NCBI RefSeq assembly: GCF_004348725.1 | Contig: NZ_SMKR01000069.1 | Location: 1-34,995, forward strand | DNA length: 34,995 bases | Direction: 5' to 3' | Source of the DNA: Kribbella turkmenica | GTDB taxonomy: Bacteria > Actinomycetota > Actinomycetes > Propionibacteriales > Kribbellaceae | Part shown: piece after piece, positions 1,984 to 27,028 of the stretch | Layout: every line of letters begins with the position of its first letter | Position numbering within the stretch: position 1 is the stretch's first letter | The notes under the pieces: generated by a model | Database searches by the model: none | Seen by the model: the letters and a program-made list of their open reading frames with translations, nothing else | Told to the model about the DNA's origin: nothing | Position numbers and translations under genes: made by a program

Positions 1984-3431
1984 ACTCAGCGATCCGGCGA
2001 CTCGCCGTGGCGGCGATCATCCTGATGCTCGCGCTGATGGCGAACTCGACCTACCTGCAGGCCTTCCGGGCCGGCGACCTGAACGCGCGCAACGACAACC
2101 GGCGGGTGCGGGACTCGCAGTTCTCGGTCGACCGCGGCCCGATCCTGATCGGCAGTACGCCGGTCGCGCAGAGCAAACCGTCGACCGACCGGTTCCAGTT
2201 CCAGCGCACGTACGCCGCCGGCCCGGTCTACGCGCCGGTGACCGGCTTCTACTCGTACCTGTACGGCCGGGCCGGGATCGAGCTGACCCAGAACGCCGAG
2301 CTGAACGGGTCCGACCCGTCGATGGCGTTCCGCCGGGTGATCGACGTGATCACCAACCGGCGTCAGCAGGGCGCCAGCGTGACGCTGACGCTGAACGCCG
2401 CGGCCCAGCAGGCGGCGTACGCCGGATTGGCCGGCAAGACCGGCGCGGTGGTGGCGATCGAGCCCAAGACCGGTCGGGTGCTCGCGCTGGCGACCCGGCC
2501 GTCGTACGACCCGAACCGGCTCGCCTCCCACGACCTGAACGATGTCAGCGCGGCGTGGAAGGAACTGACCGAGGCGCCCGGTAAGCCGATGTCGAACCGG
2601 GCGGTCAAGGAGCTCTACCCGCCGGGCTCGACGTTCAAGCTGGTGACCGCGGCCGCGGCGCTGTCGAGCGGCAAGTACACGCCGGAGACGAAGGTGCACT
2701 CGCCGGCCGAGCTGCCGCTGCCGCAGACCACCGTCCCGCTGGTGAACGAGAACGGCCGGAACTGCGGCGGCAGCGACAACGCGACGCTGACGGTCGCGCT
2801 GCGGAACTCCTGCAACACCGCGTTCGGCACCATCGGTCTGGACCTGAAGGCCGACGCGCTGCGCGAGCAGGCCGCCAAGTTCGGCTTCGGCGAGCGGCAG
2901 CTGCCCGAGCTGGGCGCGGTCGCCAGCCGGTTCCCGGCCGACCCGAACGAGCCGCAGACCGCGCAGTCCGCGATCGGTCAGTTCGACGTTCAGGCGACGC
3001 CGCTGCAGATGGCGATGGTGGCCGCCGGGATCGCGAACAAGGGCGAGGTGATGAAGCCCTACCTGGTGCAGAACGTGAAGACCCACGACCTGAAGACGGT
3101 CTCCGAGACCAAGCCCGAGTCGCTGCACCAGGCGGTCACGCCGGAGGTCGCCGCCCAGCTGACCCAGATGATGGTCGACGTGGTCGCCAACGGCACCGGC
3201 AAGCCGGGCCGGATCAGCGGGGTCCAGGTGGCCGGCAAGACCGGTACCGCGCAGACGTCGCCGGAGCGGCCGCCGTTCGCCTGGTTCACCGCGTTCGCTC
3301 CGGCCGACGACCCGAAGATCGCGGTCGCGGTGATGATCGAGGACGCGAACATCCCGCGCAACGACATCGCCGGTGGCACCCTGGCGGCACCGATCGCCAA
3401 ACGGGTGATGGAGGCGGTGCTGGGCCAGTGA
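1980..3431 (+). CDS. pbpA: Class B penicillin-binding protein (D,D-transpeptidase) PbpA
   Basis: 483 residues. An N-terminal anchor helix lies at about residues 7-28, followed by a short pedestal region and a transpeptidase domain. The three active-site motifs are present: STFK with the acyl-serine at S217, SCN at 277-279, and KTG at 420-422 followed by TAQ. The product crosslinks peptidoglycan outside the membrane and is the usual partner of the preceding SEDS polymerase. The start is GTG at 1980, which overlaps the rodA stop and implies translational coupling. Its length fits the compact actinobacterial PbpA. It is followed by a 124-bp gap before pknB, where many relatives carry pknA. Confidence 0.95.
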   Translation: MNSAIRRLAVAAIILMLALMANSTYLQAFRAGDLNARNDNRRVRDSQFSVDRGPILIGSTPVAQSKPSTDRFQFQRTYAAGPVYAPVTGFYSYLYGRAGIELTQNAELNGSDPSMAFRRVIDVITNRRQQGASVTLTLNAAAQQAAYAGLAGKTGAVVAIEPKTGRVLALATRPSYDPNRLASHDLNDVSAAWKELTEAPGKPMSNRAVKELYPPGSTFKLVTAAAALSSGKYTPETKVHSPAELPLPQTTVPLVNENGRNCGGSDNATLTVALRNSCNTAFGTIGLDLKADALREQAAKFGFGERQLPELGAVASRFPADPNEPQTAQSAIGQFDVQATPLQMAMVAAGIANKGEVMKPYLVQNVKTHDLKTVSETKPESLHQAVTPEVAAQLTQMMVDVVANGTGKPGRISGVQVAGKTGTAQTSPERPPFAWFTAFAPADDPKIAVAVMIEDANIPRNDIAGGTLAAPIAKRVMEAVLGQ

Positions 3432-3555
3432 CGGGTCGACGAACACGATACGGAATGATGCCGTGACGGTGCGTCTTTCCAACGGGGTTCCACGTGCGGC
3501 GACGGCTACCGTGGGCAAGTTGAGTGTGTTTCCGGACAGGTTGGAAGGCTGAGTC

Positions 3556-5382
3556 ATGACATCGCAGGCACGTCTCGTCGGCGGCCGGTACGAAGAAGGC
3601 GAACCGCTCGGCCGCGGCGGCATGGCCGACGTCCGCAAGGGCGTGGACAACCGGCTCGGCCGGGCGGTCGCGATCAAGCGGCTGCGGGTCGACCTGGCCA
3701 GCGACGCCACCTTCCAGGCCCGGTTCCGGCGGGAGGCCCAGTCGGCCGCCTCGCTGAACCACCCGACCATCGTCTCGGTGTACGACACCGGCGAGGAGCC
3801 CGACCCGAACGGCTCCGGCATCACCATCCCGTACATCGTGATGGAGCTGGTGACCGGCAAGACCCTGCGTGACCTGATCCGCGAGGGCCGCAAGATCATG
3901 CCCGAGCGCGCCCTGGAGATCACCTCCGGTGTGCTCGAGGCACTCGACTACAGCCACCGGGCCGGCATCGTCCACCGCGACATCAAGCCCGGGAACGTGA
4001 TGCTGACCCCGCAGGGCCAGGTCAAGGTGATGGACTTCGGCATCGCCCGGGCGGTCGCGGACACCTCGTCCACGATGACCCAGACCGCGGCCGTCATCGG
4101 CACGGCGCAGTACCTGTCGCCGGAGCAGGCCCGCGGTGAGACCGTCGACGCGCGGTCGGACCTGTACTCCACCGGCTGCCTGCTGTACGAACTGCTGACC
4201 GGGCGGCCGCCGTTCGTCGGTGAGTCGCCGGTGTCGGTCGCGTACCAGCACGTCCGGGAGCAGGCGCTGCCGCCGTCGTCGTTCGACCCCGACATCCCGC
4301 CGGAGGTCGACGCCGTCGTCCTCAAGGCGCTCGCGAAGAGCCGCGAGGAGCGGTACCAGAGCGCCGCCGAGATGCGCCAGGACATCCACCGGGTGCTGGC
4401 CGGCCAGCAGGTGACCGCGCCGATGGCCGCGGTCGCCGAGACCCGCGCGCTGGCGCCGACGGTGGCCCAGACAGCGGCCACCCAGGCCTACCGGCAGACC
4501 GGCGCCGACGACCTGCTGCCGCCGGACGACGGGATCGACGAGGCCGAGGCGGCCCGCTCCCGGCGCAACCGCGGACTCGCCTACTTCCTGCTCGGCCTGG
4601 CGATCGTGGCGGTCGCCGTCGGCGCCTACGCCCTGTTCACCAGCATGAACAAGGACAACGGCGGCACGGCGAACCCACCGGCCAAGGTGGCGGTCCCGGA
4701 CGTCACGGGGAAGTCGCTGACGGAGGCGACCGCACTGTTGTCCGAGAAGGGCTTGAAGATCACCTCGACCAGCGCGAAGAACGACACGGTCGGGCGGGGC
4801 CTGATCATCGAGCAGACGCCGCCGGCGGAGACCCAGGCTGACCCCGGCTCGACCGTCAACGTGGTGATCTCGGCCGGTCGCAGCGCCTTCCCGGTGCCGG
4901 ACGTCATCGGCAAGTCCGAGTCGGCTGCCCGGAAGGAACTGGAAGGCACCGCGGCGAATTTCAAGGTCAAGGAAGCCACCCAGGAACAGGACAGCCCGGA
5001 GAAGAAGGGCACCGTGCTGGCCGTCAGCCCGGACCCGAGCGGGATGTACCCGTCCGGCACCGAGTTCACCCTGACCGTGTCCACCGGCGTGGAGCTGGTC
5101 GACGTGCCGAACGTGGTCACCCAGCTGCAGGACGACGCGACCAAGACGCTGAAGGATCTCGGCTTCCGCGTCGGCTACGCCACCGCAAGCGACCCCAACG
5201 CGGCCGACCAGACGGTGCTCAAGCAGAGCGTCAAGGCGAACACCAAGGCGCCGAAGGGCTCACTGGTCACGCTGACGGTGAACGACGCGGGCGAGCCGAC
5301 ACCGCCGCCGTCGTCACCGACGCCGTCCGAGTCGGAGACTCCGGACGATCCGGTCACCCCGCCGATCACCATCGGCGGCTGA
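3556..5382 (+). CDS. pknB: Transmembrane PASTA-domain Ser/Thr protein kinase PknB
   Basis: 608 residues. The cytoplasmic Hanks-type kinase occupies about residues 12-285, with glycine loop GRGGMADV, lysine K41, the HRDIKPGN catalytic loop (D142) and DFG (D160). A linker with several TQTA/ETRA threonines leads to one membrane helix at about 341-361. Three extracellular PASTA repeats follow, each opening with VPDV or VPNV, then a Pro/Ser/Thr tail. PknB senses lipid II or muropeptides and phosphorylates cell-wall synthesis and division proteins; PstP reverses this. Four PASTA repeats are common in actinobacterial PknB, so three is slightly short. The start is ATG with GGAAGG upstream (from 3542). 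The 124-bp leader may hold its own promoter. Confidence 0.95.
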   Translation: MTSQARLVGGRYEEGEPLGRGGMADVRKGVDNRLGRAVAIKRLRVDLASDATFQARFRREAQSAASLNHPTIVSVYDTGEEPDPNGSGITIPYIVMELVTGKTLRDLIREGRKIMPERALEITSGVLEALDYSHRAGIVHRDIKPGNVMLTPQGQVKVMDFGIARAVADTSSTMTQTAAVIGTAQYLSPEQARGETVDARSDLYSTGCLLYELLTGRPPFVGESPVSVAYQHVREQALPPSSFDPDIPPEVDAVVLKALAKSREERYQSAAEMRQDIHRVLAGQQVTAPMAAVAETRALAPTVAQTAATQAYRQTGADDLLPPDDGIDEAEAARSRRNRGLAYFLLGLAIVAVAVGAYALFTSMNKDNGGTANPPAKVAVPDVTGKSLTEATALLSEKGLKITSTSAKNDTVGRGLIIEQTPPAETQADPGSTVNVVISAGRSAFPVPDVIGKSESAARKELEGTAANFKVKEATQEQDSPEKKGTVLAVSPDPSGMYPSGTEFTLTVSTGVELVDVPNVVTQLQDDATKTLKDLGFRVGYATASDPNAADQTVLKQSVKANTKAPKGSLVTLTVNDAGEPTPPPSSPTPSESETPDDPVTPPITIGG

Positions 5383-13651: not shown

Positions 13652-14647
13652 TTACGGGTGGTTGGGGTTTTCTTTCAGCGGGGGTTGTACGGCGGGGGTG
13701 TCGTCGGTCCACGTAAGTTCTGAGAGCCACATGGAGCGGCCGGGTGGGTCCACGCCGACGGCGGACGGGTCCCAGGCGTGGTAGACGAACCAGTAGCGGT
13801 TGTCCTTCTCGAGGACCATGTTGTGGCCGGGGCCCGCGGCGGCCTCGGAGGTGACGAGGATGGGGTCGCCGGACTTGGTGCAGGGGCCGGTGGGGGTGGT
13901 GCAGAGGGCGTGGCCGACGGCGTAGGTCTCCTTGTCGTAGGCGTTGGCGGAGTAGAAGAGGTGGAACTTGCCCTCGCGCTCCACCATGTACGGCGCCTCG
14001 ACCAGGTTGCCCTCCCAGTCGAGGTCCTGCTTGATCAGGCGACGGGTCGGCCCGACGAGCCGCAGCCCGTCGGGGGAGAGTTCGGAGACGTAGATCCAGG
14101 TGTCGACACCGATCGCGTTGCCGTCGTTCTTCCAGTACAGCCAGCGCTTGCCGGACGAGTCCTGGAACGGCGAGGCGTCGATCGAACCGCCCTCGTCCAC
14201 CTGACAGATCAACGGCTCGGACGATTTGTCGACATATGGACCCGTGGCCGAGGAAGCGACCGCGACCCCGATGCACTGCCGCCCGGACGCGTCGTCGGAC
14301 GTCGTGTAGTACATGGCGTACCGATCGGCAGCCTGGACGGTGACCTCCGGGGCCCACACCTTCCCCGGGGTGGTCCACGCGGGCAGCTCGGGCAGCGCGT
14401 CGCCGATCTGTTCCCACGACACCAGGTCCGCGGACTTCAGCGTCTGCACGTTGCCGAGCGAGCCGTTGGTCGCGAAGGCGACGTACCCGTTGTCGACGGC
14501 AATCACCTGCGGATCGGCGAAGTTCTGGTCGTAGACCGGATTGGTGAAGCCCATCGCGGGCGCTCCTTCCGAGGACGCACGGCCGGGATCGCTGCAACCA
14601 CCCAATCCCAGCACGAGCAGCAGCAACAACCCCAGCCGGCGTCTCAT
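13652..14647 (-). CDS. Secreted lipoprotein glycoside hydrolase family 43 (arabinan-active)
   Basis: 331 residues from ATG 14647; an upstream extension of the frame is arginine-rich shadow sequence. The lipoprotein signal ends with LGLGGC (lipid-bearing C18). The five-bladed GH43 fold is indicated by NFADPQVI (general base D45), KVWAPEVT, GSIDASPF (D157, transition-state/pKa modulator) and VEAPYMVERE (general acid E217), followed by FHLFYSANAY. It would act outside the cell on alpha-arabinan or arabinoxylan; the subfamily specificity cannot be read by eye. It is the last gene of the six-gene operon, starting one base after the stop of the other GH43 gene. Confidence 0.88.
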   Translation of the reverse strand: MRRRLGLLLLLVLGLGGCSDPGRASSEGAPAMGFTNPVYDQNFADPQVIAVDNGYVAFATNGSLGNVQTLKSADLVSWEQIGDALPELPAWTTPGKVWAPEVTVQAADRYAMYYTTSDDASGRQCIGVAVASSATGPYVDKSSEPLICQVDEGGSIDASPFQDSSGKRWLYWKNDGNAIGVDTWIYVSELSPDGLRLVGPTRRLIKQDLDWEGNLVEAPYMVEREGKFHLFYSANAYDKETYAVGHALCTTPTGPCTKSGDPILVTSEAAAGPGHNMVLEKDNRYWFVYHAWDPSAVGVDPPGRSMWLSELTWTDDTPAVQPPLKENPNHP

Positions 14648-14648
14648 C

Positions 14649-16880
14649 TCACTTGCTCTCGTAGAACCGCAGGTACTCGAACGTCGCCACCGGCGGTACC
14701 GCGGCCCCGGTGAACTCACCGTGCGCGTACAACCCGAGCCGGGCCGGAGCGGACAGCACCCACGCCGCACCCCACGTCCAGTCCTTCCCGTCCACCGACG
14801 TACCGGCGCGGTACACGTGCTCACCCGCCGCGTTCTCGTGGTACGCGAGCCGCATCCACAGCGTCGGCGCCGACCGCCCGATCGCGGCCGCGCCGTACGA
14901 TGTCGCACCGTCCGACGGCCGCGCCACCAGCTCACGCCCGTACTCCGTCTGCCGGGTCCGCCAGATCGCCACGTTCCCGAGTCGCGCGAAGTCGCTGTCG
15001 TTCAGGTACGCGATCATTCCGGCCTGCTGGTAGTTGCGGATGTCGCCCTCACCGAGGTCGAGGTGGAGCTTCGTCTCCGCGATCCAGCTGGACGTGGACG
15101 GCGTCTCGTGGAACAGCAGGCCGGCATTGTTGCCGCCGCCGACCAGGTCCGCGTTCTGCAGCGGCCACGACAACTTGCCGTCAGCAACGACTGCCTCGGC
15201 GTCCGGCCGCACCCAGGACCAGTCGGCACCCAGCCCGCCGGTGAACTCGTCACCGGCCAGCAACTTCCCGGTCCGAGGTACGTCCGCCATCCGCCGGACC
15301 GGAGCCGCCACCGGCCGCACCGTCAGGTTGTCCACCTCGGCCGAACCGAGCCACCGTACCGGCGCCGGCTTCACCGAGAGCCCGCGGACGACGAGCCGTG
15401 CCTCCGCGTACAGGTCACCCAGTCCGGCGTCGGACAACCGCGCCGTCACCGTCGACCCGGACACCTGGATGCTCAGCTTGTTCCAGTCGGACCGGTCGAA
15501 GTCCGCCGGCAGCGGCGCCGAGGCCGTACGACGGCCGGCCACCACGGTGATCTTGGACGCCGACACGGATGCGACGACCGCTTGACCGCCGAGCACCGTG
15601 GTGAACGACGACCCCAGCCGGACATCCGCTTCGACGCGGAGCGAACCGCGGGGAGCCGGCTTCCGTGTCCGCGCGGGACCGGAGATCGCCGCGGTCGGAC
15701 CACCGAGCTCGTCACCGGGCCGACGCTCGGCGCCGAGCAGACCACCGGCCGGGTCGGTCGAGGTGATGCCGAGCCCTGAACCGGTCGTCGGCGCGGGCAC
15801 CGGGCGGTCGGACGGGCCGAGGCCGGCCCGGGTCCGCGGCCAGCCGTCGATCCAGTCGATCCGGTCGATCAGCATCGGCCGCCGGTTGATCCCGAACGGA
15901 GCGGTCAGCCAGGGCGTGCCGCGGTCGATCGCGTGGTACACGATGTGGTCCTGCCCGGCCGCGTCCGTCATGAACGCGTGGTGGCCCGGACCGATCCACT
16001 TGTTGCCGTTCTGGGTGATGACCGTGGTACCGCCCACGCGGGACTCCAGCATCGACGCACCGTCCTTGTCCAGGAACGGGCCCTTGGGCGACCGCGACCG
16101 GCCGGCGAAGACCGAGTAGCCGGTGGTCGGGCCGGCGCAGCAGTTCATCGACGAGGCCATCAGGTAGTACCAGCCGTCGCGGTAGACGACGTACGAGCCT
16201 TCGTAGCGGTCGCCGATCGTCACCTGCGTCGGCTCACCGACCGCCTGCAGACCGTCCGGGGTCAGCTCGGTGACGGAGATGCCGCCGTAGAACCCGCCGT
16301 AGTACAGGTACCGCTTGCCGTCGGCGGCCGTCAGCAGCGCCGGGTCGATGGTGCCGAAGTAGCCGCCGTTGCCGTCCGGTTTCGGGGTGACGACCGGGCC
16401 GCCCGTGGCGGTCCACGGGCCCGCCGGGGTCGGGGCGGTGGCCACGCCGATGGCGGGATCACCACCGGGGTTGGCGGCGGTGTCGGTGACCGTGAAGTAC
16501 ATGACGTACTTGCCGTCGAAGTACCGGATGTCCGGCGCCCAGAAGAACGACCCGGGCGCCGCCCAGGCGGGTTTGGTCTGGTCGTCGAAGACCGTGCCGA
16601 GGTACTCCCAGGAGCTGAAGTCCTTGGTCCGGGCCATGTGCATCAAACCGAACGGACCGCCGGACACCAGCGGGTCGGAGGTGGCGTACGCGTACCAGTA
16701 GCCGTCCCGGCCCTGGATGATCGCCGGGTCGGCGAAGGTGTCGGCGAAGCTCGAGGAGATCGCGTTGGTCGTGGTCTGGCCGGGTGGTGCTGCGGTGGCG
16801 GCCGGATAACCGGCAGCCGTACCGGCGGCCACCGAGGCCACAGCGAGCGCTGCGGCCAGCCATCGTCTCTTGGAGGGCAC
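14649..16880 (-). CDS. Secreted multidomain glycoside hydrolase family 43 protein
   Basis: 743 residues from GTG 16880, preceded by AGAAGGGA; a TTG start at 16910 would overlap the upstream stop but has no such site. A Sec signal peptide (RRWLAAALAVASVAAG, about residues 1-32) leads to the GH43 domain: FADPAIIQ (base D51), FFWAPDIRYF, GTIDPALLT (D179) and RYEGSYVVYRDG (acid E227). A metal-binding-type histidine occurs in WIGPGHHAFM. The middle (about 350-500) is a beta-rich module of unknown type. The C-terminal part (DEFTGGLGADWSWVRPD onward) resembles the DUF1349/GH43 C2 concanavalin-like sandwich. It probably degrades arabinan-type polysaccharide outside the cell together with the next gene. 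Confidence 0.88.
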   Translation of the reverse strand: MPSKRRWLAAALAVASVAAGTAAGYPAATAAPPGQTTTNAISSSFADTFADPAIIQGRDGYWYAYATSDPLVSGGPFGLMHMARTKDFSSWEYLGTVFDDQTKPAWAAPGSFFWAPDIRYFDGKYVMYFTVTDTAANPGGDPAIGVATAPTPAGPWTATGGPVVTPKPDGNGGYFGTIDPALLTAADGKRYLYYGGFYGGISVTELTPDGLQAVGEPTQVTIGDRYEGSYVVYRDGWYYLMASSMNCCAGPTTGYSVFAGRSRSPKGPFLDKDGASMLESRVGGTTVITQNGNKWIGPGHHAFMTDAAGQDHIVYHAIDRGTPWLTAPFGINRRPMLIDRIDWIDGWPRTRAGLGPSDRPVPAPTTGSGLGITSTDPAGGLLGAERRPGDELGGPTAAISGPARTRKPAPRGSLRVEADVRLGSSFTTVLGGQAVVASVSASKITVVAGRRTASAPLPADFDRSDWNKLSIQVSGSTVTARLSDAGLGDLYAEARLVVRGLSVKPAPVRWLGSAEVDNLTVRPVAAPVRRMADVPRTGKLLAGDEFTGGLGADWSWVRPDAEAVVADGKLSWPLQNADLVGGGNNAGLLFHETPSTSSWIAETKLHLDLGEGDIRNYQQAGMIAYLNDSDFARLGNVAIWRTRQTEYGRELVARPSDGATSYGAAAIGRSAPTLWMRLAYHENAAGEHVYRAGTSVDGKDWTWGAAWVLSAPARLGLYAHGEFTGAAVPPVATFEYLRFYESK

Positions 16881-16906
16881 AGGCGGGTCCCTTCTGATTC
16901 GGTTGG

Positions 16907-17734
16907 TCAACCTTTGATGCCGCTGCGCGCGACACCTTCGATCACGTACCGCTGGACGAACACGTAGAGGATCAGCACCGGTACGGCGGCCACCGTCGCG
17001 CCGGCCATGATCACGGGGTAGTCGGTGGTGTAGGCACCCTGCAGCAGGGTCAGACCGGCCGGCAGGGTCAGCCGCTCCGGGCTGAACAGCACGAACAGCG
17101 GCCAGATGAAGTCGTTCCAGTTCGTCAGGAACGACAGCACGGTCAGCGTCGCCAGCGCCGGTTTGGCGTTCGGCAGGATGATCCGGGTGAAGATGATCCA
17201 GGAGTTCGCGCCGTCGATCAGCGCGACCTCCTCGAGCTCCTTCGGGATGGCCAGGAAGAACTGCCGCATGAAGAAGACGCCGAAGGCGCCCGCGGCACCG
17301 GGGACGATCAGCGCGGCCAGCGTGTCCAGCCAGCCCAGGTTGTCCATCAGCAGGTAGTTCGGCATCAGGAACACGAACCCGGGGACGAACAGCGTCAGCA
17401 GGATCACGCTGAAGATCGCGTTCTTGAACCGGAAGTTCATCCGGGCCAGCGCGTAGCCGGCCATCGACGCCACCGTCACGACCAGCAGCGCGTGCAGCGC
17501 GGCCGCGCCGAAGCTGTTCAGCGCCCAGCGCAGCACCGGGTTCTGACCACCGGTGGTGAGGATCTCGCCGTACGCCCGGCCGGTCGGCTCCTGCGGGAGG
17601 GGCGTCGGCGGGTCGGACTGCGACTCACCAATCGTCTTGAACGACGTGATCACCATCCACAGCAGCGGAAGGATGACCAGCACGGCCAGCAGGACCACCA
17701 GGATCCAGAAGGCGGCGGACGGTCGGCGCCTCAT
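16907..17734 (-). CDS. Carbohydrate ABC transporter permease (MalG-like)
   Basis: 275 residues from ATG 17734, which overlaps the stop of the first permease gene (ATGA). About six membrane helices are present. The ATPase-docking EAA loop is KELEEVALIDGANSWIIFTR followed by ILPNAKPALATL. It ends in the family's usual RYVIEGVARSGIKG. It forms the channel with the other permease for uptake of arabino-oligosaccharides (substrate inferred from the operon). No ATP-binding gene is in the operon, which is common in actinobacteria, where one shared MsiK-like ATPase drives several sugar importers. Confidence 0.93.
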   Translation of the reverse strand: MRRRPSAAFWILVVLLAVLVILPLLWMVITSFKTIGESQSDPPTPLPQEPTGRAYGEILTTGGQNPVLRWALNSFGAAALHALLVVTVASMAGYALARMNFRFKNAIFSVILLTLFVPGFVFLMPNYLLMDNLGWLDTLAALIVPGAAGAFGVFFMRQFFLAIPKELEEVALIDGANSWIIFTRIILPNAKPALATLTVLSFLTNWNDFIWPLFVLFSPERLTLPAGLTLLQGAYTTDYPVIMAGATVAAVPVLILYVFVQRYVIEGVARSGIKG

Positions 17735-18672
17735 GACTTGCGCTCCCTCAGCAGGACGAAGTTGAGCACGGAGATGATCGCCAGGCACAACGCCAGCAGG
17801 TAGCTCATCGCGGTGGCCTGTCCCATCCGGAACTGGCTGAAGCCGGTGTCGGTGATCACCATCAGCGCGGTCGCGGTGGTGTCGCCGGGACCGCCCTGGG
17901 TGATCAGCACCGACTGGCCGAACATGTTGGCACTGGCGAGCACGGTGATCGTGACGATGAAGACGGTCACCGGCCGCAGCCCCGGCAGCGTGACGTTGCG
18001 GAACTGCTGCCAGCTGTTCGCGCCGTCCAGCTCCGCCGCCTCGTACTGCTCGGCCGGGATGTCCTGCAGCCCGGCCAGGAAGATGATCGCGTTGAAGCCG
18101 GCGGTCCACCACACGGTGACCGCGACCAGGGCGATGAACGCGTACGGCTGGTCGTTCGTCCACCCGATGTCCGGAGCTCCGAACAGTCCGAGGAACGCGT
18201 TCAGCAGACCGAAGCTGGTGTCCAGGATGTAGCGGAACATCAGGCCGATCACGGCGACGCCGAGGACGAACGGCGCGAAGTACACCGCCCGGAAGAAGGT
18301 CCGGCCCGGGAACTTCCGGTTCAGCAGGACGGCGAGCGCGAGGGGCAGCGCCACCAGGAACGGCACCGACGCGACCGTGAAGATCCCGGTCGCCCGCATG
18401 CCGTGCCAGAACGGCTCGGCGGTCGCCGACAACGGGTCGAACAGGTCCTTGTAGTTCTGCAGACCGACGAACGGCTTCCCCGGCAGCTGGAAGTCCCAGT
18501 CGTGCAGGCTCATCCAGAACCCGAAGATCGCCGGCCCCACCACGAAGAGCAGGAACAGCGTGAGATACGGCGCCAGGAACAGGTACGGCGTCGCCCGTCC
18601 GTACCCGCGCACCTCGGTGGACGCGCGGGTGCGACGTCTGCGGATCGCACCCGCGTCGGCCTGGACGGCCAT
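17731..18672 (-). CDS. Carbohydrate ABC transporter permease (MalF/UgpA-like)
   Basis: 313 residues. A short basic cytoplasmic head (ADAGAIRRRRTRASTEVRGYG) precedes about six helices. The EAA loop is AEQYEAAELDGANSWQQFRN followed by VTLPGLRPVTVF. FLFLAPYLTL-like and PAIFGFWMSLHDWDF segments at the front are typical of sugar permeases of this branch. It starts two bases after the binding-protein gene ends and overlaps the next permease gene, so expression is surely coupled. Confidence 0.93.
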   Translation of the reverse strand: MAVQADAGAIRRRRTRASTEVRGYGRATPYLFLAPYLTLFLLFVVGPAIFGFWMSLHDWDFQLPGKPFVGLQNYKDLFDPLSATAEPFWHGMRATGIFTVASVPFLVALPLALAVLLNRKFPGRTFFRAVYFAPFVLGVAVIGLMFRYILDTSFGLLNAFLGLFGAPDIGWTNDQPYAFIALVAVTVWWTAGFNAIIFLAGLQDIPAEQYEAAELDGANSWQQFRNVTLPGLRPVTVFIVTITVLASANMFGQSVLITQGGPGDTTATALMVITDTGFSQFRMGQATAMSYLLALCLAIISVLNFVLLRERKS

Positions 18673-18674
18673 GC

Positions 18675-20003
18675 CTACGCGCCGTACTTCTTGCGGTTGG
18701 CGTCCAGGATCTTGTCGGCCCGCGCGGCGGCGTCCGAGAGCGCCTTGGCCGGTTCCGCCTTCAGCAGCACGGCCTCGTTGACGGCCTTGTTCAGCTCGTT
18801 CAGCGCGTCACCGATGCCGGGAACCGCCGGCGGGAAGTGCAGGTGGTCGATCTGAGTCGCCAGCGCCGCCTGCTCCGGCAGGGCCTTGAACTCGGCCGAC
18901 TCGCGGACCTGCTTGCGGGCCGGCACCTGGCCGCCCTTGGCCCACTCGAGCGACTTCTGGCTGATGTAGTTGACGAACACCCGGGCCGCGGTCGACTTGT
19001 TCGCGTCCGCGGTCTTCAGCTTCGGCAGCACGAACTGGTGCGAGCCGGCCCAGGCGGCCTCGGTGCCGCCGATGTTCGGCAGCGGGGCAACGCCCCACTC
19101 GAGGCCCTTCTTCTCCCGGAACGTGTTGATGTTCCAGATGCCGTTCCAGACGAAGGCGTTCTTGCCGTTCATCACCGCGATGTTGTCGGCGTCCTGGGCG
19201 ACGTTCTTCGGGCTGTGGCCGTTCTTCACCAGGTCGGAGAACCAGGTCAGCGCCTTCACGCCGCCCTCCTCGTGCCAGGTCGCCTTGGAGGCGTCGTCGT
19301 TGAACAGGTCGCCGCCGAACTGCCAGAGCAGCGCCTGCACGGTGAGGACGCCGGTGAACGGGAACGGCGTGGCCCAGTGGCCCTGGATCCCTTTGCCCTT
19401 CAGCGCGTCGAGGGCCGCCGCGTACTCGTCGGCGTTCGTCGGCGGCTTGGCCGGGTCGAGGCCGGCCTGGGTCATCACGGTCTTGTTGTAGAAGAAGCCG
19501 AGCGGGTGGACGTCGAGCGGGATGCCGTACCGCTTGCCGTTGAACTCCCCGGCCTTCCAGACGACCTCGGAGAAGTCCTCCTGCTTGAGCTCGAGCGCCG
19601 TGGCCACGTCGTCGAGCGGCTCGATCACGTTCCGGGCCGCGTTGGTCGCCAGCGAGTCGACGTGCATGATCGCGACCGCGGGACCGCGGCCGCTGCTGAC
19701 CGCGGTGGGCAGCTTGGTGTAGTAGTCCGCCCACTGCATCACGGTCATCTTGACCTTGATGTTGGCGTGCTCGCCGTTGAACTGGTCGACCAGTTTGCGC
19801 ATGAACGGGCCGTCACCGCCGGTGAATCCGTTCCAGAAGTCGAGTTCGACGTTCGGGCCGTCGTACCCCTTGGCGCCGCCGTCTCCGGTCGCGGGCGCGG
19901 CGCCGGGCTTGCCGGCCGACCCTTCGCCGCAACCGGCCAGGATTCCGGCCGCACCGGCCGCACCGATACCGCCGAGGACCAGGCGCCGGCTGATCGTGTT
20001 CAT
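18675..20003 (-). CDS. Extracellular sugar-binding lipoprotein of the ABC importer
   Basis: 442 residues from ATG 20003, which has GGAGG upstream and overlaps the arabinofuranosidase stop (ATGA). The signal peptide has twin arginines (SRRLVLGG) and a lipobox LAGC with C25 as the acylated cysteine, so Tat export of the lipoprotein is possible. The mature part is a family 1 solute-binding protein: VELDFWNGFTGGDGPFMRKL at the front, YGIPLDVHPLGFFYNKTVM in the middle, and ending ARADKILDANRKKYG. It would capture arabinose-containing oligosaccharides and deliver them to the two permeases encoded next. Confidence 0.93.
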   Translation of the reverse strand: MNTISRRLVLGGIGAAGAAGILAGCGEGSAGKPGAAPATGDGGAKGYDGPNVELDFWNGFTGGDGPFMRKLVDQFNGEHANIKVKMTVMQWADYYTKLPTAVSSGRGPAVAIMHVDSLATNAARNVIEPLDDVATALELKQEDFSEVVWKAGEFNGKRYGIPLDVHPLGFFYNKTVMTQAGLDPAKPPTNADEYAAALDALKGKGIQGHWATPFPFTGVLTVQALLWQFGGDLFNDDASKATWHEEGGVKALTWFSDLVKNGHSPKNVAQDADNIAVMNGKNAFVWNGIWNINTFREKKGLEWGVAPLPNIGGTEAAWAGSHQFVLPKLKTADANKSTAARVFVNYISQKSLEWAKGGQVPARKQVRESAEFKALPEQAALATQIDHLHFPPAVPGIGDALNELNKAVNEAVLLKAEPAKALSDAAARADKILDANRKKYGA

Positions 20004-21523
20004 GGTGTACCTCCAGGGGACTTTGCCTCTCCGGAAGAGAGGCGAATCAGGTGCCACGATGCCGGGGGCAAGGTGGCGGTGCAGCTGCCGTCGACGACTT
20101 CCGTTCCGTCGACGGCACGGGGGACCACCCGGTCCGGGTCGTCGGCGGTGTTCACCGCGGCCCGGTCGTCGTCATAGAGCGCCAAGTGCTCGATCACCCG
20201 GTACCCAGGGGCCAACGGGACCTCCAGGTCGACCTTGTCGTACTCGCTCCGGTTGACCACGAAGATCGCGATCTCACCGATGCTCTCGTCGTACGTCGCC
20301 GTGCTCCACAGCGCCGGCACCCGGCCGAACGCGGCGGTGTCGATCTCGGGCCCGCCGCTGACCGCGGTCCGCAGCACGGTCGGGCCGGCGTACCGGGCGG
20401 TCAGCGCGAACGGGTGGAAGATGGTCTGCCGCCAGGCGCGGCCGTCCGGCTCGGTGCGGATCGGCCCGATCACGTTGACCAATTGCGCGAGGCAAGCGAT
20501 CTTCACCCGGTCGGCGTGCCGGAGCAGGGTGATCAGCAGGCTGCCGACCACCACCGCGTCGTCGACGGTGTAGGTGTCCTCGATCAGCGGCCCGACCTCG
20601 CGGATGTCCAGGCCGAGCTCACCGGGGAAGCGCTGCTGGTACCAGACGTTCCACTCGTCGAACGACAGGGTGAGCTCCTTGTCGCTGCGCTTGAGCGCCT
20701 TCACGTGGTCGGCGGTCGCGACCACGGCGGAGATCATCCGGTCCATCTCCTCGGACGCGGCCAGGAAGCTCGCCTGGTCGCCGTCCTTCGGTTCGTAGTA
20801 CGCGTGCAGGCTGATGTGGTCGACCAGGTCGTAGGTGCGTTCGAGGACGACCCGCTCCCACTCGCCGAAGGTCGGCATCCCGGCGTTGCTCGAGCCGCAG
20901 GCGACCAGTTCGAGACCGGGGTCGACGCGACGCATCGCGTTCGCGGTCTCCTCGGCCAGCCGGGCGTACTCCTCGGCCGTCTTGTGGCCGATCTGCCAGG
21001 GCCCGTCCATCTCGTTGCCGAGGCACCAGACCCGGATGTCGTGCGGCGCCTCGCTGCCGTTGGCCACCCGGCGGTCGGGCAGCTCGGTCCCGGCCGGGAG
21101 GTTGCAGTACTCGAGCAGCTCGACGGCTTCCTTGATCCCGCGGGTGCCGAGGTTGACCGCCCAGATCGGCTCGACGCCGGCCTTGCGCGACCAGGCGACG
21201 AACTCGTCGGTGCCGAACTGGTTCGGCTCGATCGCCCGCCAGGCCAGGTCGAGCCGGCGTGGCCGCCGGTCCTTCGGCCCGACACCGTCCTCCCAGTCGT
21301 AGTTGGAGACGAAGTTGCCGCCGGGGTAGCGGATCGTCGTGACGCCCAGCTCGCGGACCAGCTCCAGCACGTCCTCGCGGAAGCCGTCGTGGTCCGCGGT
21401 CGCGTGCCCGGGCTCGTAGATGCCGGTGTACACACAGCGCCCCATGTGCTCGACGAACGAGCCGAACACCCGTCGATCGAGCCCGCCGATGACGAACGCA
21501 GGATCCACCACAAGCCGTGTCAC
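20000..21523 (-). CDS. abfA: Alpha-L-arabinofuranosidase, GH51
   Basis: 507 residues with no signal peptide, so probably cytoplasmic. A retaining GH51 enzyme that removes terminal alpha-L-arabinofuranosyl groups. Family motifs: FGSFVEHMGRCVYTGIYEPG, IRYPGGNFVSNYDWEDGVGP, the acid/base E171 in LGNEMDGPWQIGHK and the nucleophile E290 in LSFDEWNVWYQ. The length is normal for the bacterial enzyme. First gene of the operon, it starts about 90 bp from the divergent VOC gene, in a region with LacI-like sites. In the pathway it finishes the imported arabino-oligosaccharides produced by the two GH43 enzymes. Confidence 0.95.
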   Translation of the reverse strand: MTRLVVDPAFVIGGLDRRVFGSFVEHMGRCVYTGIYEPGHATADHDGFREDVLELVRELGVTTIRYPGGNFVSNYDWEDGVGPKDRRPRRLDLAWRAIEPNQFGTDEFVAWSRKAGVEPIWAVNLGTRGIKEAVELLEYCNLPAGTELPDRRVANGSEAPHDIRVWCLGNEMDGPWQIGHKTAEEYARLAEETANAMRRVDPGLELVACGSSNAGMPTFGEWERVVLERTYDLVDHISLHAYYEPKDGDQASFLAASEEMDRMISAVVATADHVKALKRSDKELTLSFDEWNVWYQQRFPGELGLDIREVGPLIEDTYTVDDAVVVGSLLITLLRHADRVKIACLAQLVNVIGPIRTEPDGRAWRQTIFHPFALTARYAGPTVLRTAVSGGPEIDTAAFGRVPALWSTATYDESIGEIAIFVVNRSEYDKVDLEVPLAPGYRVIEHLALYDDDRAAVNTADDPDRVVPRAVDGTEVVDGSCTATLPPASWHLIRLSSGEAKSPGGTP

Positions 21524-23022: not shown

Positions 23023-23114
23023 AAGGCCGCTGGACCGCATCGACAAAGGCCGGCTCGAGCTCAGGACCCGCGCCGAGTTCGGCTGTGCCGACTCCAGCAA
23101 CCCCGGCGCAGTGT

Positions 23115-26100
23115 TTACCGGCAGCCCGGGCCCGCCGCGGCCTCGGCTGCGGTTGTGCCGACGAGACCCGCTGGTACGCACGGCACGTCGATCCGGCCGG
23201 AGACGAGGTCGTGGCGAAGGTCCTCCAGCCGTCCGGCGTACGGGGTGATGAAGCCGCCGGATTGCGTGAGCTCGATGCCGCCGTTGGACAGGTCGTACTC
23301 GCGGAGGCCGGGTGTCAGGGTCCCGTCCAGCCAGGAGCGCAGGCCGTCGTACATTGCCACGTCGAAGCGGATGACCATCGAGGTCAGGACGTGCTCCCGA
23401 CTTTCTACCCTGGTAATCCAGTCGCCGTTGAGATAGGCGTCGTCGTCCACTCCGATTCCCCAGAGCTGCCGATCGAGCTGCGTGGAGAGTACGGCGACCT
23501 CGTCCAGCGCCCCGTACTGCGCGCCACCGGCGGCCGGGAAGATGACGTCCGCTCCTGCACGGACCATTTCGCGGGTTGTCCGGCGCGCCCCGACCTGGTC
23601 GAAGAAGCCGGTGTAGTCAGGGACACGGCTGAGGTACGTCGACAGCACCCGGGCACCCGGAGTCACCGCGCGGACCCCGGCGACGAATCCGGCCTCGAAT
23701 CTGCGCAGTACGTCGGTGTCGGCGCCGCCGATGAAGCCGACGGTCCCCGACTTGCTGGCCATGGCGGCCGCTGCCCCGGCAAGAAACGCGCCGTCCTGGT
23801 GGGCGAAGCCGATGGACGTCACGTTCGGCTCGTCGACGATACCGGTGAACATCAGGAAGTCGACGTCGCGATGGCGGCGGGCGACTGGTGCCAGGTCGGT
23901 GTCGTTGGTGGTGACGATGACCAAGTCGTCGCCTTGCGCTGCGAAGCGTTCCGCAGCCGATTCGGCCGATTCGACATCGACGTCGACCTTGGCCAGCGCG
24001 AAGCGGTTCTCATCGGCGACGCGGTCCAGGCCGAGCTCGAGGTACCGGTCGATGTGTCCGGTGCGGTGATAGACCCATCCCACTCGGGGGGTGGACTGCC
24101 CGCCGGGTGTGAGTAAGCCGAAAGCGGCCGACACGCCGGCGAACAGCACGGCCGCCACCGCAACGAGCAGCCAGCGCCGCGACCGCCGCTCGAGACGCCT
24201 GCGGGATTCGGCCAGGGCGGCCGCCCGTGCCATCTCGTCGTCGACCATGGTCTGCGAGGCATCGAGAAACGCCGCCTCTGGTCCGCTCAGCTGCAGCACG
24301 CCCTCAGCGCGCCAGTTCTGGAACTGCTCGAGCCGCGAGCCGCGGAGCAGATAGCCGGCATCGTGTTCCGCGGCGTGCCATTCCTCGAGGGCGACCCGCA
24401 GCGCACCGTGCCGCTCCAAGGCGGTGCGGTGCCTCCGCAGAAGGTTTGCGAGCCAGGGCCATCGCTCGAACAACGCGTCGTGAGCCACCTCGACGGTGGC
24501 GTGTCCTGTCTGCTCGTCCCGGTCGAAAGTGATCAGGTGGTGGCGACCGACGGCCCTGAGGACGTCGGAAATGGCGGCGGGGTCGACTCCGGTGAGTGCT
24601 CCGAGTTCCCGGGCGGGCGTGCGCCGCCGGACGATCTGGCCGCCTTCCACGCGGACCAGGCGAAGGAAAATCTGGGTGGCCGCGGCGGCGACCTCGTCCG
24701 GCCAGCCGCGCCGAATCTGCTCGGCACGCCGGGTCAAGGCCGCCTGCAGGCCACCGATCGCCTGGTAGCCGGCCAGGTCGAGCGCGGATCGGCTCCGGTC
24801 GAAGAGTTCGGTGAGAGCGAACTGCAGGAGTGGCAGCTGTGCTGGCTGGTCGGCGGTGGCGGCGACGAGCTCCGCGAGCAGCGCAGGTTCGACCGCGACT
24901 CCGACGCGGCTCGCCGGGGCGACCACGGCCGCTTCGACTTCCGCGGCCGTCATCGGCAGTACGTTCACCACCCCGGCGGCGAAGATTTCGGCGAACCCCG
25001 GCTGCCGTAGCGGCCGGTCGTAGAGGTCCGCCCGAAGCGCGAGCAGGAGACTCACCCCGGGCTGGGCCGAGAGGTTGGCCAGTCGGTCGAGAAGGGCGCG
25101 CACCTGCGCCTCGTCCAGTGCCAGCAGGTGTTCCTCGAACTGGTCCATCACCACGAGCACGGGCATTCCGGCGGACGCGTGTGGTCCGGCCGCACCCCCG
25201 GCGCGTGCGGCGGCGACCCGCGACTCGATCTCGTCCGGGTCGTGCACGTCGGGCGCCAGCTCGACGATGGCAGTTCGCCGGGGTTGACTCGCCAGGAGCC
25301 GCGCCAGCACTCCAGCTTTCAGGACGCTCGACTTGCCGGACCCGGATGGACCGACCACCGCGACCAACGGTTGCCCTTCGCCAAGGCGCGCCAGGATCCC
25401 CTCGGTCAGAGCCTCACGCCCGAAGTAGTCGTCGGCGTCCGCGACCTCGAAGGGCCGCAGGCCCTTGTAGGGATTCCGGTGGACCACCGAGACCGCGACG
25501 GCGGGAACCTCCGGGTCAAGCGCGGGATCGTGGAGAAGGATGCGTTCCTGGAGACCCGCCAGCGAAGGCATCGGGTCCAGGCCGAGTTCGTCACGCAGGC
25601 TCTCCCGGTACACGGTGTAGGTCCTCAACGCCTCCCGATGCCGCCCGGCGCGGTACAACGCAAGCATGAGCAGTTCCCGGCTGCGTTCGCGATAGGGGTC
25701 CTCGCGGCAGGCACGTTGGGCCCAGGTGACCGCTCGGGCCGGATCTCCGGACGACAGGCACGCCTGGGCGAGATCCTCGAGCACCCGCAGCCGCAAGTCC
25801 TGCCACCGCCGGATCTCAGGCTGAGCGATGGTTTCGAGCGCCGTGTCGGCGAGGGGTTCTCCCTGCCACAGCTCCAGTGCGGCGGTGAGCAGATCCGCTG
25901 CTGACGGCCTCATCTCCGTGACCTCGTGGTGCCCTTCGTCGGCCAGCTGCTCGAAGCGGATGACGTCCAGCGCCTCGGCCGGCAGATTCAGCAGGTAGCC
26001 CGGCTTCTGCGTCACGATGCCCCCCGGACCATAGCCGCCGAGGGCTCGCCTCAGGTTCGAGACGTACAGCTGAACAGAGTGTTCCGCCGTACGAGGTCGG

Positions 26101-26312
26101 CGCTCGCCCCAGAGCAGGTCGACTATTCGGTCGGTGCTGACGACGTCGCCACGGTGCAGCAGCAGGATGGCCAGCAGGCTTCGCTGCTTGGGTGGTCCCA
26201 GGTCGACCGGGCTGCCGTCGACAGTGACGCGGAGCGAGCCGAGCATTCGCACGCTGACGCGGTCACCCAGACCCCTGTGGCTGGGGAACCGCCCGCCGAC
26301 CAGGTCACCCAC
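23115..26312 (-). CDS. Membrane-spanning SARP regulator fused to STAND ATPase and BMP-type ligand-binding domain
   Basis: About 1065 residues from GTG 26312, chosen because GGAGGGGAGG lies just upstream; a TTG at 26330 is also in frame. Domain order: OmpR-like winged helix at about 22-105 (MLGSLRVTVDGSPVDLGPPK, VQLYVSNLRRALG); bacterial transcriptional activation domain at about 112-262 (RFEQLADEG, ALYRAGRHREALRTY); a novel-STAND type NTPase introduced by NPYKGLRPFE (280 on), with Walker A GPSGSGKSS (321-329) and Walker B VLVVMDQFEE (385-394). After an alpha-helical region come one membrane helix at about 714-735 and an extracellular domain (744-1050) of the BMP/PnrA substrate-binding family (FTGIVDEPNVTSIGFAHQDG, GTVGFIGGADTD, FEAGFVAGVRAV). 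No helical transporter domain is present. It is probably a ligand-controlled membrane-bound transcription factor; the ligand is unknown, possibly a nucleoside-like molecule. Confidence 0.85.
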   Translation of the reverse strand: MGDLVGGRFPSHRGLGDRVSVRMLGSLRVTVDGSPVDLGPPKQRSLLAILLLHRGDVVSTDRIVDLLWGERRPRTAEHSVQLYVSNLRRALGGYGPGGIVTQKPGYLLNLPAEALDVIRFEQLADEGHHEVTEMRPSAADLLTAALELWQGEPLADTALETIAQPEIRRWQDLRLRVLEDLAQACLSSGDPARAVTWAQRACREDPYRERSRELLMLALYRAGRHREALRTYTVYRESLRDELGLDPMPSLAGLQERILLHDPALDPEVPAVAVSVVHRNPYKGLRPFEVADADDYFGREALTEGILARLGEGQPLVAVVGPSGSGKSSVLKAGVLARLLASQPRRTAIVELAPDVHDPDEIESRVAAARAGGAAGPHASAGMPVLVVMDQFEEHLLALDEAQVRALLDRLANLSAQPGVSLLLALRADLYDRPLRQPGFAEIFAAGVVNVLPMTAAEVEAAVVAPASRVGVAVEPALLAELVAATADQPAQLPLLQFALTELFDRSRSALDLAGYQAIGGLQAALTRRAEQIRRGWPDEVAAAATQIFLRLVRVEGGQIVRRRTPARELGALTGVDPAAISDVLRAVGRHHLITFDRDEQTGHATVEVAHDALFERWPWLANLLRRHRTALERHGALRVALEEWHAAEHDAGYLLRGSRLEQFQNWRAEGVLQLSGPEAAFLDASQTMVDDEMARAAALAESRRRLERRSRRWLLVAVAAVLFAGVSAAFGLLTPGGQSTPRVGWVYHRTGHIDRYLELGLDRVADENRFALAKVDVDVESAESAAERFAAQGDDLVIVTTNDTDLAPVARRHRDVDFLMFTGIVDEPNVTSIGFAHQDGAFLAGAAAAMASKSGTVGFIGGADTDVLRRFEAGFVAGVRAVTPGARVLSTYLSRVPDYTGFFDQVGARRTTREMVRAGADVIFPAAGGAQYGALDEVAVLSTQLDRQLWGIGVDDDAYLNGDWITRVESREHVLTSMVIRFDVAMYDGLRSWLDGTLTPGLREYDLSNGGIELTQSGGFITPYAGRLEDLRHDLVSGRIDVPCVPAGLVGTTAAEAAAGPGCR

Positions 26313-26343
26313 GGCGCACCTCCCCTCCAAGGCAATGTACGAC

Positions 26344-26369
26344 GAGGGCGGAGTGGATGCTCCGCCCTC
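26344..26369 (-). terminator. Hairpin between the secreted-protein gene and the SARP-BMP gene
   Basis: GAGGGCGGAG and CTCCGCCCTC form a perfect 10-bp stem with a 6-base loop, 11 bases after the stop of the small secreted protein gene. No T-tract follows. It may be a terminator, partial terminator or mRNA-stabilising element setting different expression levels for the two genes. Confidence 0.6.
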
Positions 26370-26380
26370 AGTCCTCCGTT

Positions 26381-26857
26381 TCAGCCGGCGACCATTCCGC
26401 GCATCGCGTCGACGATGCCCACAGCCTCGTCACACGGCCCCGGGTAGTAGGTGCCGACGAGCTGACCGTGGCCAGACAGGTTCGCGTACGCGCCCGTGCC
26501 GGAGACAACGCTCCACGTGCCGCGGTCGGCCGGGTCACACGGCGACCAGCGAGCCAGGATGTGGACGACGAACGTTCCCGAGCCGTCGTCGCAGTTGAAG
26601 ACCTTGTCCACTTCGAACGTGAACATGTTGCGACGCTCGGTGACTTCTTGCGAGAGCAGCGCCGTGGTGCCGCTAGGGCAAAGCCTTCGTCCGCTCGCCT
26701 GGAACGTGCCGCTGCCGGCGTCGAACGACTCGGTGACGAGAAGCTCGACGTACCCGTCGCGCGGGGTCGCGCCCGAGGCCGGGACCGCCGCCGACACACC
26801 GGCCGCCGTGACAACGATCGCGACCGCCATCCGCACAACCCACCCAAGATGCCGCAT
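26381..26857 (-). CDS. Small secreted protein, AOC/dirigent-barrel-like, unknown function
   Basis: 158 residues from ATG 26857, preceded by GGAGGAGG. A Sec signal peptide (VVRMAVAIVVTAAGVSAAVP, cleavage near ASGA) precedes a small beta-rich domain of about 125 residues with four cysteines (RRLCPSG, VFNCDDG, SPCDPAD, PGPCDEA), enough for two disulfides. The segment TWSVVSGTGAYANLSGHGQL resembles the closing strands of allene-oxide-cyclase or dirigent-like barrels, a weak resemblance only. It sits 68 bp upstream of the SARP-BMP fusion gene on the same strand, separated by a hairpin. It may be cotranscribed and functionally linked, for example as a regulated product or an outside partner of the sensor; this is inference. 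Confidence 0.75.
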   Translation of the reverse strand: MRHLGWVVRMAVAIVVTAAGVSAAVPASGATPRDGYVELLVTESFDAGSGTFQASGRRLCPSGTTALLSQEVTERRNMFTFEVDKVFNCDDGSGTFVVHILARWSPCDPADRGTWSVVSGTGAYANLSGHGQLVGTYYPGPCDEAVGIVDAMRGMVAG

Positions 26858-27028
26858 TTCCAGACCTCCTCCCGTGGGCGGGTCCATCGCCGCCCGTACC
26901 GGAGGAGCCTTCCAACCGTCGCTCTACAGATGCTCTATCTCACCGCGCAGGCGCCGATTTGTGGCAGGCGGGCGGGACTCGAGGTGCCACCCGACGGCAC
27001 AGTCGTCGTGGTCTCCAGGACGTCGGGC

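What the first reader, a model, noticed from the sequence alone, without database searches (positions are those of the whole stretch)
23115..26312. One-polypeptide transmembrane transcription factor: SARP + STAND ATPase + BMP-type binding domain
Seen: winged helix, activation domain, NTPase with intact Walker motifs, one membrane helix, then a complete BMP/PnrA-like binding domain outside. Known: SARPs are normally cytosolic activators, STAND ATPases are signal switches, and BMP proteins are separate lipoproteins feeding nucleoside or autoinducer transport. Inference: the binding domain has been captured as a sensor, so ligand binding outside would change the ATPase state and free or oligomerise the DNA-binding end inside. 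I do not know of a characterised member. Whether it stays membrane-bound or is cleaved is open; the roughly 40 residues before the helix are charged and could be a linker or protease site.
Basis: partly seen in the sequence, partly recalled or inferred. Interest (0 to 1): 0.85.

Follow-up and report, generated by a model that had tools for sequence, protein, structure and literature searches.

The report
Membrane gene switch with outside sensor
One bacterial protein joins a gene-activating end inside the cell, an ATP-binding switch, a membrane anchor and a small-molecule-binding end outside; it belongs to a rare family that I did not find described, and its outer part looks altered to bind something other than the usual nucleosides.

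Summary
Window 23115-26312 (minus) encodes one intact protein: SARP (winged helix + BTAD), nSTAND1 NTPase, one membrane helix, PnrA/BMP fold. It is no chance join: 26 further STAND-BMP fusions were found, all 24 named ones from MAGs, mostly Acidimicrobiia, and fused BMP domains form one branch apart from the sampled stand-alone BMPs. Elsewhere the scaffold carries SBP_bac_1 or WD40 domains instead: the outer module is swapped. In its genus the gene is in 1 of 38 genomes, inside a 4.0-kb insertion together with a small exported-protein gene; one distant relative has the same pair. Corrections: the fold is complete but the nucleoside pocket is not (2 of 8 contact positions kept; all 8 in 60 of 60 stand-alone BMPs); the charged stretch is modelled as a continuous helix, not a loose linker. 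Most likely a one-component transmembrane receptor-activator: ligand outside, helix, STAND switch, SARP on DNA. Anatomy is shown; mechanism, ligand and targets are inferred. New variant of a known kind (transmembrane regulators; large SARPs).

The parts
23115..26312 (-). SARP-nSTAND1-TM-BMP fusion gene, GTG start, 1065 aa
   Evidence: homologues
25995..26195 (-). winged-helix DNA-binding domain (Trans_reg_C, residues 46-112)
   Evidence: SARP part of the model fits AfsR 8k60, rmsd 2.7, 41% identity
25536..25970 (-). bacterial transcriptional activator domain (BTAD, residues 121-265)
24357..25472 (-). nSTAND1 NTPase (residues 287-658)
   Evidence: E 4.1e-85
25326..25352 (-). Walker A GPSGSGKSS (residues 327-335)
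   Evidence: sequence; invariant positions
25131..25160 (-). Walker B region ending DQFEE (residues 391-400)
   Evidence: sequence; D396, Q397, E399, E400 invariant
24144..24284 (-). predicted continuous helix (residues 683-729), charged stalk leading into the membrane segment
24111..24167 (-). membrane helix (residues 722-740)
   Evidence: hydropathy peak 2.46; residues 728-745 have pLDDT under 50
23169..24095 (-). extracytoplasmic PnrA/BMP-fold domain (residues 746-1054)
   Evidence: pocket changes
26381..26887 (-). small exported protein (168 aa; an internal ATG at residue 11 gives a plain signal-peptide start), same strand, upstream; weak DUF3224 match below the cut-off
   Evidence: DUF3224 E 5.7e-4, 20.1 bits against a cut-off of 25; homologue beside fusion L090
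26344..26369 (-). 10-bp perfect inverted repeat (6-nt loop) between the two genes; possible attenuator
   Evidence: z -2.74; no T-run terminator found
23023..27028 (.). about 4.0 kb absent from the corresponding place in 4 of 6 fetched relatives

Best explanation
A one-component transmembrane receptor that is itself a transcription activator. The BMP-fold domain outside closes on a small ligand, probably not a canonical nucleoside. The closure is passed through the membrane helix and the helical stalk to the nSTAND1 NTPase, which goes from an autoinhibited to an ATP-bound, oligomer-prone state. That releases or pairs the SARP ends, which bind direct repeats and recruit RNA polymerase, acting from the membrane. 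The likeliest target is its own two-gene operon with the small exported protein. Shown: domains, order, motif conservation, predicted fold, family, sensor replacement, gene-pair insertion. Inferred: topology, ligand, switching, oligomer, DNA site, targets.
For: Domains and Walker motifs. BMP fold: Z 34.8 to PnrA. SARP fold close to AfsR, whose NOD/TPR part inhibits the SARP domain, inhibition lifted by ATP (PMC10936776, passages). Single TM helix in 25 of 27 fusions including this one, with an Arg-rich inner flank. Stalk modelled as one helix. The outer module is swapped while SARP-nSTAND1-TM stays: in the own genus 21 matches in 12 other genomes end at query residues 733-743, i.e. at the TM, and 3 of 3 examined carry WD40; SBP_bac_1 in L082/L113, L140, L145, L147, L151, L153. 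Pair with the small exported gene conserved in L090 and inserted together.
Against: No ligand, ATPase, DNA-binding or expression data exist. Pocket residues for nucleosides are mostly lost, so ligand binding is presumed from the fold. 2 of 27 fusions lack a TM helix (L089, L096), so an outside sensor is not universal. The full-length model has pTM 0.43, so the arrangement of domains is not predicted. No direct repeats were found in the two intergenic stretches searched. A homologue of the small gene stands without a fusion within about 1.5 kb in G503. Exported neighbours are as common beside STAND genes without BMP.
Confidence: 0.6

Rival explanations
1. Co-component receptor: the outer BMP domain is a docking platform, and the signal is sensed by or with the small exported protein encoded next to it, as VtrC/ToxS do for VtrA/ToxR.
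For: Two-gene insertion, pair conserved in L090, both genes in 1 of 38 genus genomes; pocket degenerate; exported proteins of differing families adjoin several fusions; precedent PMC9214523 (passages).
Against: Only 1 of 24 named fusions has a homologue of this small protein (several contigs end before the neighbour). Neighbour families differ, and the enrichment is seen equally in STAND loci without BMP: 11 of 21 against 53 of 304. The small protein could simply be the regulated product.
Confidence: 0.2
2. Membrane-tethered activator freed by proteolysis: the STAND-SARP half is cut off and works in the cytoplasm.
For: Charged stretch before the helix (sequence); TM-less natural versions L089 and L096 exist.
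Against: The stretch models as a continuous helix and is Arg-rich, as a usual inner flank is. No cleavage site was sought with a dedicated tool.
Confidence: 0.1
3. Immune-type STAND that senses phage or damage rather than a nutrient signal.
For: nSTAND NTPases include defence proteins (recalled); sporadic distribution and an insertion at a variable site.
Against: PADLOC gives only weak P-loop matches, mad3 1.1e-5 and mad8 5.3e-4, over residues 320-373. The effector is a SARP activator, not a toxin, and no defence genes were seen among the 20 window ORFs scanned with Pfam.
Confidence: 0.04
4. Relic: a decayed BMP domain on an otherwise working or dead regulator.
For: 6 of 8 contact positions changed and a long branch (1.39) in the BMP tree; single-genome occurrence in the genus.
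Against: Open frame with codon-position GC 0.71/0.49/0.84 in the BMP part; structural Gly, Ala and Asp positions kept; high-confidence fold; aromatic at the Phe176 position in 22 of 25 fusions and Asp or Glu at Asp225 in 25 of 25.
Confidence: 0.06

Closest known systems
Large SARPs (AfsR of Streptomyces coelicolor)
   Same: N-terminal SARP domain (AfsR 8k60, E 9.5e-40; fold rmsd 2.7) followed by a STAND NTPase expected to restrain it
   Different: nSTAND1 instead of NB-ARC, and no C-terminal TPR sensor; a membrane helix and an outer BMP domain instead. The SARP review PMC10972967 has no occurrence of 'membrane' or 'transmembrane' in its main text (find)
Transmembrane transcription regulators (ToxR/CadC type; survey PMC10269533)
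   Same: DNA-binding domain inside, single TM, outer domain, in one polypeptide
   Different: An NTPase switch lies between DNA-binding domain and membrane. The survey's main text has no occurrence of SARP or BTAD (find); its supplements were not seen
PnrA/BMP nucleoside-binding lipoproteins (TmpC 2fqw, BmpA, BmpD)
   Same: Fold (Z 34.8) and 2 of 8 nucleoside-contact positions
   Different: Not a lipoprotein, no nucleoside transporter among the window ORFs scanned, contact residues D19, D24, F27, N28, D98, K242 replaced
Med-type BMP protein of Bacillus (2hqb, named transcriptional activator of comK)
   Same: BMP fold tied to gene regulation (Z 30.9, rmsd 2.6)
   Different: No SARP or STAND part; I saw only the PDB title, and the paper search on Med gave nothing relevant
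SARP-nSTAND1-TM proteins with WD40 or SBP_bac_1
   Same: Same scaffold through the membrane helix
   Different: WD40 propeller (L154, L178-L180) or SBP_bac_1 (L082/L113) in place of BMP

Membership tests
SARP | N-terminal OmpR-type winged helix plus BTAD | tested here: met
Large SARP as defined in PMC10972967 (passages) | NB-ARC domain followed by C-terminal TPR | tested here: not met
   Pfam gives nSTAND1, TM, Bmp; TPR matches are weak (below cut-off) and lie inside the BTAD, 179-220
STAND (nSTAND1) | nSTAND1 domain with Walker A and B | tested here: met
STAND (nSTAND1) | nucleotide-dependent switching or oligomerisation | not testable with these tools
   needs purified protein
Transmembrane transcription regulator | DNA-binding domain and TM helix in one chain | tested here: met
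   (prediction)
Transmembrane transcription regulator | regulates genes while in the membrane | not testable with these tools
   no expression data
BMP/PnrA | two-lobe BMP fold and Pfam Bmp match | tested here: met
BMP/PnrA nucleoside receptor | nucleoside-contact residues (D19, D24, F27, N28, D98, F176, D225, K242 in Borrelia Bmp numbering) | tested here: not met
   2 of 8 kept (F909, D962); 60 of 60 stand-alone BMPs keep all 8. Positions mapped by motif and alignment, not by superposition; contacts from PMC13325309 and PMC7093131 (passages)
BMP/PnrA transporter subunit | lipoprotein beside a nucleoside ABC transporter | tested here: not met
   no N-terminal signal in the fusion; no such permease among 20 window ORFs scanned
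Co-component system (VtrA/VtrC, ToxR/ToxS) | adjacent exported partner that binds the regulator's outer domain | tested here: inconclusive
   adjacent exported gene present; binding untested; same neighbour trend in controls

The most novel reading that the evidence does not exclude
A modular class of transmembrane STAND receptors that are themselves SARP transcription activators, built by swapping extracellular domains (BMP, SBP_bac_1, WD40) onto one SARP-nSTAND1-helix scaffold. The BMP line arose once, has redesigned the nucleoside pocket for new ligands, and moves between genomes with a small exported partner that forms part of the receptor or is its output. This would be a bacterial NLR-like receptor that reads the outside and writes directly to DNA.
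Probability: 0.35. Interest if true: 0.8.

Novelty: new variant of a known kind. Interest (0 to 1): 0.6.

Why it matters
SARPs are known as cytosolic activators, and what most large, STAND-bearing ones sense is unknown; the AfsR paper calls its own inducer elusive (PMC10936776, passages). A SARP-STAND whose sensor is a ligand-binding fold with dozens of solved relatives makes the question testable: find the ligand of the outer domain, and the STAND switch can be driven on demand. The swapped outer modules suggest a general plug-in receptor chassis in uncultured Actinomycetota, useful for engineering promoters that answer to outside molecules.

Tried and rejected
Direct search of genome contigs with the single protein found no relative; a 5-row alignment without the Walker A region worked. 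Long 'open_frame' values of BMP hits looked like fusions but are not: L051 is a stand-alone BMP protein with an ABC ATPase downstream, and 0 of 60 fetched stand-alone BMP loci hold SARP or STAND.

Exported-neighbour idea: upstream neighbours within 200 bp of BMP fusions are exported in 9 of 15 cases against 21 of 134 more distant ORFs (23 loci, L110 dropped as near-copy of L107), but STAND loci without BMP show the same, 11 of 21 against 53 of 304 (56 loci). So this is not special to BMP fusions; ORF picking was a home-made heuristic that misses some signal peptides (L095 and L102 scored none) and the loci are related. An earlier run with all 24 loci gave 13 of 28 near and 21 of 136 far. Foreign base composition: GC 0.692 for the insertion against 0.692 for the window, no signal. 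Promoter and terminator scans found nothing. Plasmid collection: 405 records match parts, none covers 80% of the query. PADLOC: weak P-loop matches only. Pfam on ten neighbour proteins gave a family only for L103 (alpha/beta hydrolase). Literature searches for a described member found none in the held library; subscription papers are mostly not held.

Numbers in the printed table are one residue too low; corrected here.

Full report
What is there. The minus strand holds one uninterrupted gene, 23115-26312 from a GTG with a strong ribosome-binding sequence. It encodes a winged helix, a BTAD, an nSTAND1 NTPase, one membrane helix and a BMP-fold domain, each domain above its Pfam cut-off. The key NTPase residues are invariant in 22 aligned fusions. 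AlphaFold models the outer domain alone at pLDDT 91.5, with PnrA of Treponema as best structural match (Z 34.8) and the Bacillus comK-activator Med-type protein the closest by rmsd among the top BMP matches (2.6 over 278 residues). The SARP part of the full-length model matches AfsR and EmbR. The full-length model (pLDDT 84.6, pTM 0.43) draws residues 683-729 as one helix into the membrane segment; residues 728-745 are low-confidence and the placement of domains relative to each other is not predicted.

It is a family. A phylum sample of 396 genomes gave full-span matches in 5 other genomes, all outside the window's class. A scan of named genomes gave 24 loci with STAND plus BMP, of which 21 also show the SARP part; the other 3 (L092, L094, L108) run off their contigs. 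All 24 named records are MAGs: 11 Acidimicrobiia or Acidimicrobiales, 3 Ilumatobacter or its family, 1 each of Nitriliruptorales, Euzebyaceae, Thermoleophilia and Geodermatophilaceae, 4 unplaced Actinomycetes or Actinomycetota, 1 labelled Acidobacteria, 1 'bacterium'. In a tree of 25 fused and 30 stand-alone BMP domains the two kinds fall on opposite sides of one branch (SH-aLRT 99; quick method, midpoint root, stand-alone rows only from the window's genus and order). The nearest kin are L090 and L091. In the STAND tree the BMP fusions need 2 changes of label, because L129, which ends about 100 residues after its TM helix, lies inside them.

Sensor swapping. Proteins with the same SARP-nSTAND1-TM scaffold carry SBP_bac_1 (L113, identical in its STAND part to L082, and L140, L145, L147, L151, L153) or WD40 (L128, L130, L154, L155; L120 only below cut-off) after the helix. 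In L140, L145, L147, L151 and L153 the STAND domain starts some 250 residues later, so another segment lies between. In the window's own genus, 21 matches in 12 other genomes stop at query residues 733-743, the membrane helix, and the 3 of these examined have WD40. Two fusions, L089 and L096, lack a membrane helix; L089 has a paralogue with the helix in the same genome.

How it came here. All 38 genomes of the genus have the adjacent LacI gene, but only the window's genome has the fusion and the small gene. In 4 of 6 fetched relatives the LacI gene is followed, after 0 to 0.44 kb, by the FAD-enzyme gene; the 4.0 kb between them in the window is missing. In the two others, L174 and L175, the stretch after LacI differs otherwise. 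A class sample found the fusion in no other of 394 genomes. This points to gain by transfer rather than loss everywhere, though composition gives no sign of it. I believe the genus is Kribbella; no call names it.

The gene pair. The inserted stretch holds two genes: a small exported protein (26381-26887) and, behind a 10-bp hairpin, the fusion. The closest relative, L090, has a homologue of the small protein (37%, 1e-22) in the same upstream place. It is otherwise rare: 2 of 296 genomes of a phylum sample, the second without a fusion nearby. Other fusions adjoin exported proteins of unrelated families, for example proteins with a HExxH motif in L101, L102, L105 and L109 (the motif reading is mine), but STAND loci without BMP show the same tendency.

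The pocket. Nucleoside contacts in Borrelia BmpA/BmpD are Asp19, Asp24, Phe27, Asn28, Asp98, Phe176, Asp225 and Lys242 (PMC13325309, abstract and passages; PMC7093131, passages). Mapped by motif order on an alignment of 25 fusions and 60 stand-alone BMPs from the window's genus and order, all eight are present in 60 of 60 stand-alone proteins. The window protein has H755, T757, I760, D761, T829, F909, D962, I987: two kept. In the 25 fusions the Phe27 place is aromatic in at least 9, Asp98 kept in 19, Phe176 aromatic in 22, Asp225 Asp in 22 and Glu in 3, Lys242 kept in 21. So the loss is strongest in the window's own line, and the family as a whole keeps a usable cleft. The mapping has not been checked by superposition; at Phe176 either F909 or F910 could be the partner.

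How it most likely works. Ligand closure of the outer domain is transmitted by the stalk helix to the STAND NTPase, which by analogy with AfsR (NOD and TPR parts inhibit the SARP domain, ATP binding relieves this; PMC10936776, passages) frees the SARP dimer to activate promoters from the membrane. The own operon is the first candidate target. Each step after the anatomy is inference.

What is new. I found no description of a membrane SARP, of a BMP-SARP fusion or of this scaffold in the papers searched; the library lacks most subscription journals. The parts are known kinds, so this is a new variant of a known kind rather than a new category.

Noticed in passing
L089 (G615) and L096: Two fusions lack the membrane helix, joining STAND almost directly to the BMP domain; L089 has a TM-bearing paralogue L078 in the same genome, so the helix was probably lost.
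   Followed up: partly
L101:7204-7797 (+), L102:6954-7703 (-), L105:6992-7678 (-), L109:3005-3709 (-): Homologous exported proteins with a HELGHAW or HEIGHAW (HExxH) motif sit directly beside four BMP fusions; L101 and L105 have no Pfam match (the other two were not scanned).
   Followed up: partly
L104:6997-7647 (-), L107:6894-7664 (+), L110:6825-7595 (+): A second family of exported or membrane-anchored neighbours, without a Pfam match in L104 and L107.
   Followed up: partly
window 26344-26369: Perfect 10-bp hairpin between the small gene and the fusion, which could set their expression ratio.
   Followed up: partly
L113-L169 with STAND but no BMP: Immediate upstream neighbours of nSTAND1-TM genes encode exported proteins more often than background (11 of 21 against 53 of 304 by a rough heuristic).
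   Followed up: partly
L107 and L110: Nearly identical fusion loci in MAGs labelled Thermoleophilia and Acidimicrobiales: transfer or, likelier, mislabelled binning.
   Followed up: no
window 13652-21523: Cluster with two GH43 enzymes, an alpha-L-arabinofuranosidase, a sugar-binding protein and a permease next to a LacI regulator: an arabinan-type utilisation locus, unrelated to the finding.
   Followed up: no
window 583-5382: FtsW/RodA-type protein, penicillin-binding protein and PASTA kinase genes in a row: a usual actinobacterial cell-wall cluster.
   Followed up: no
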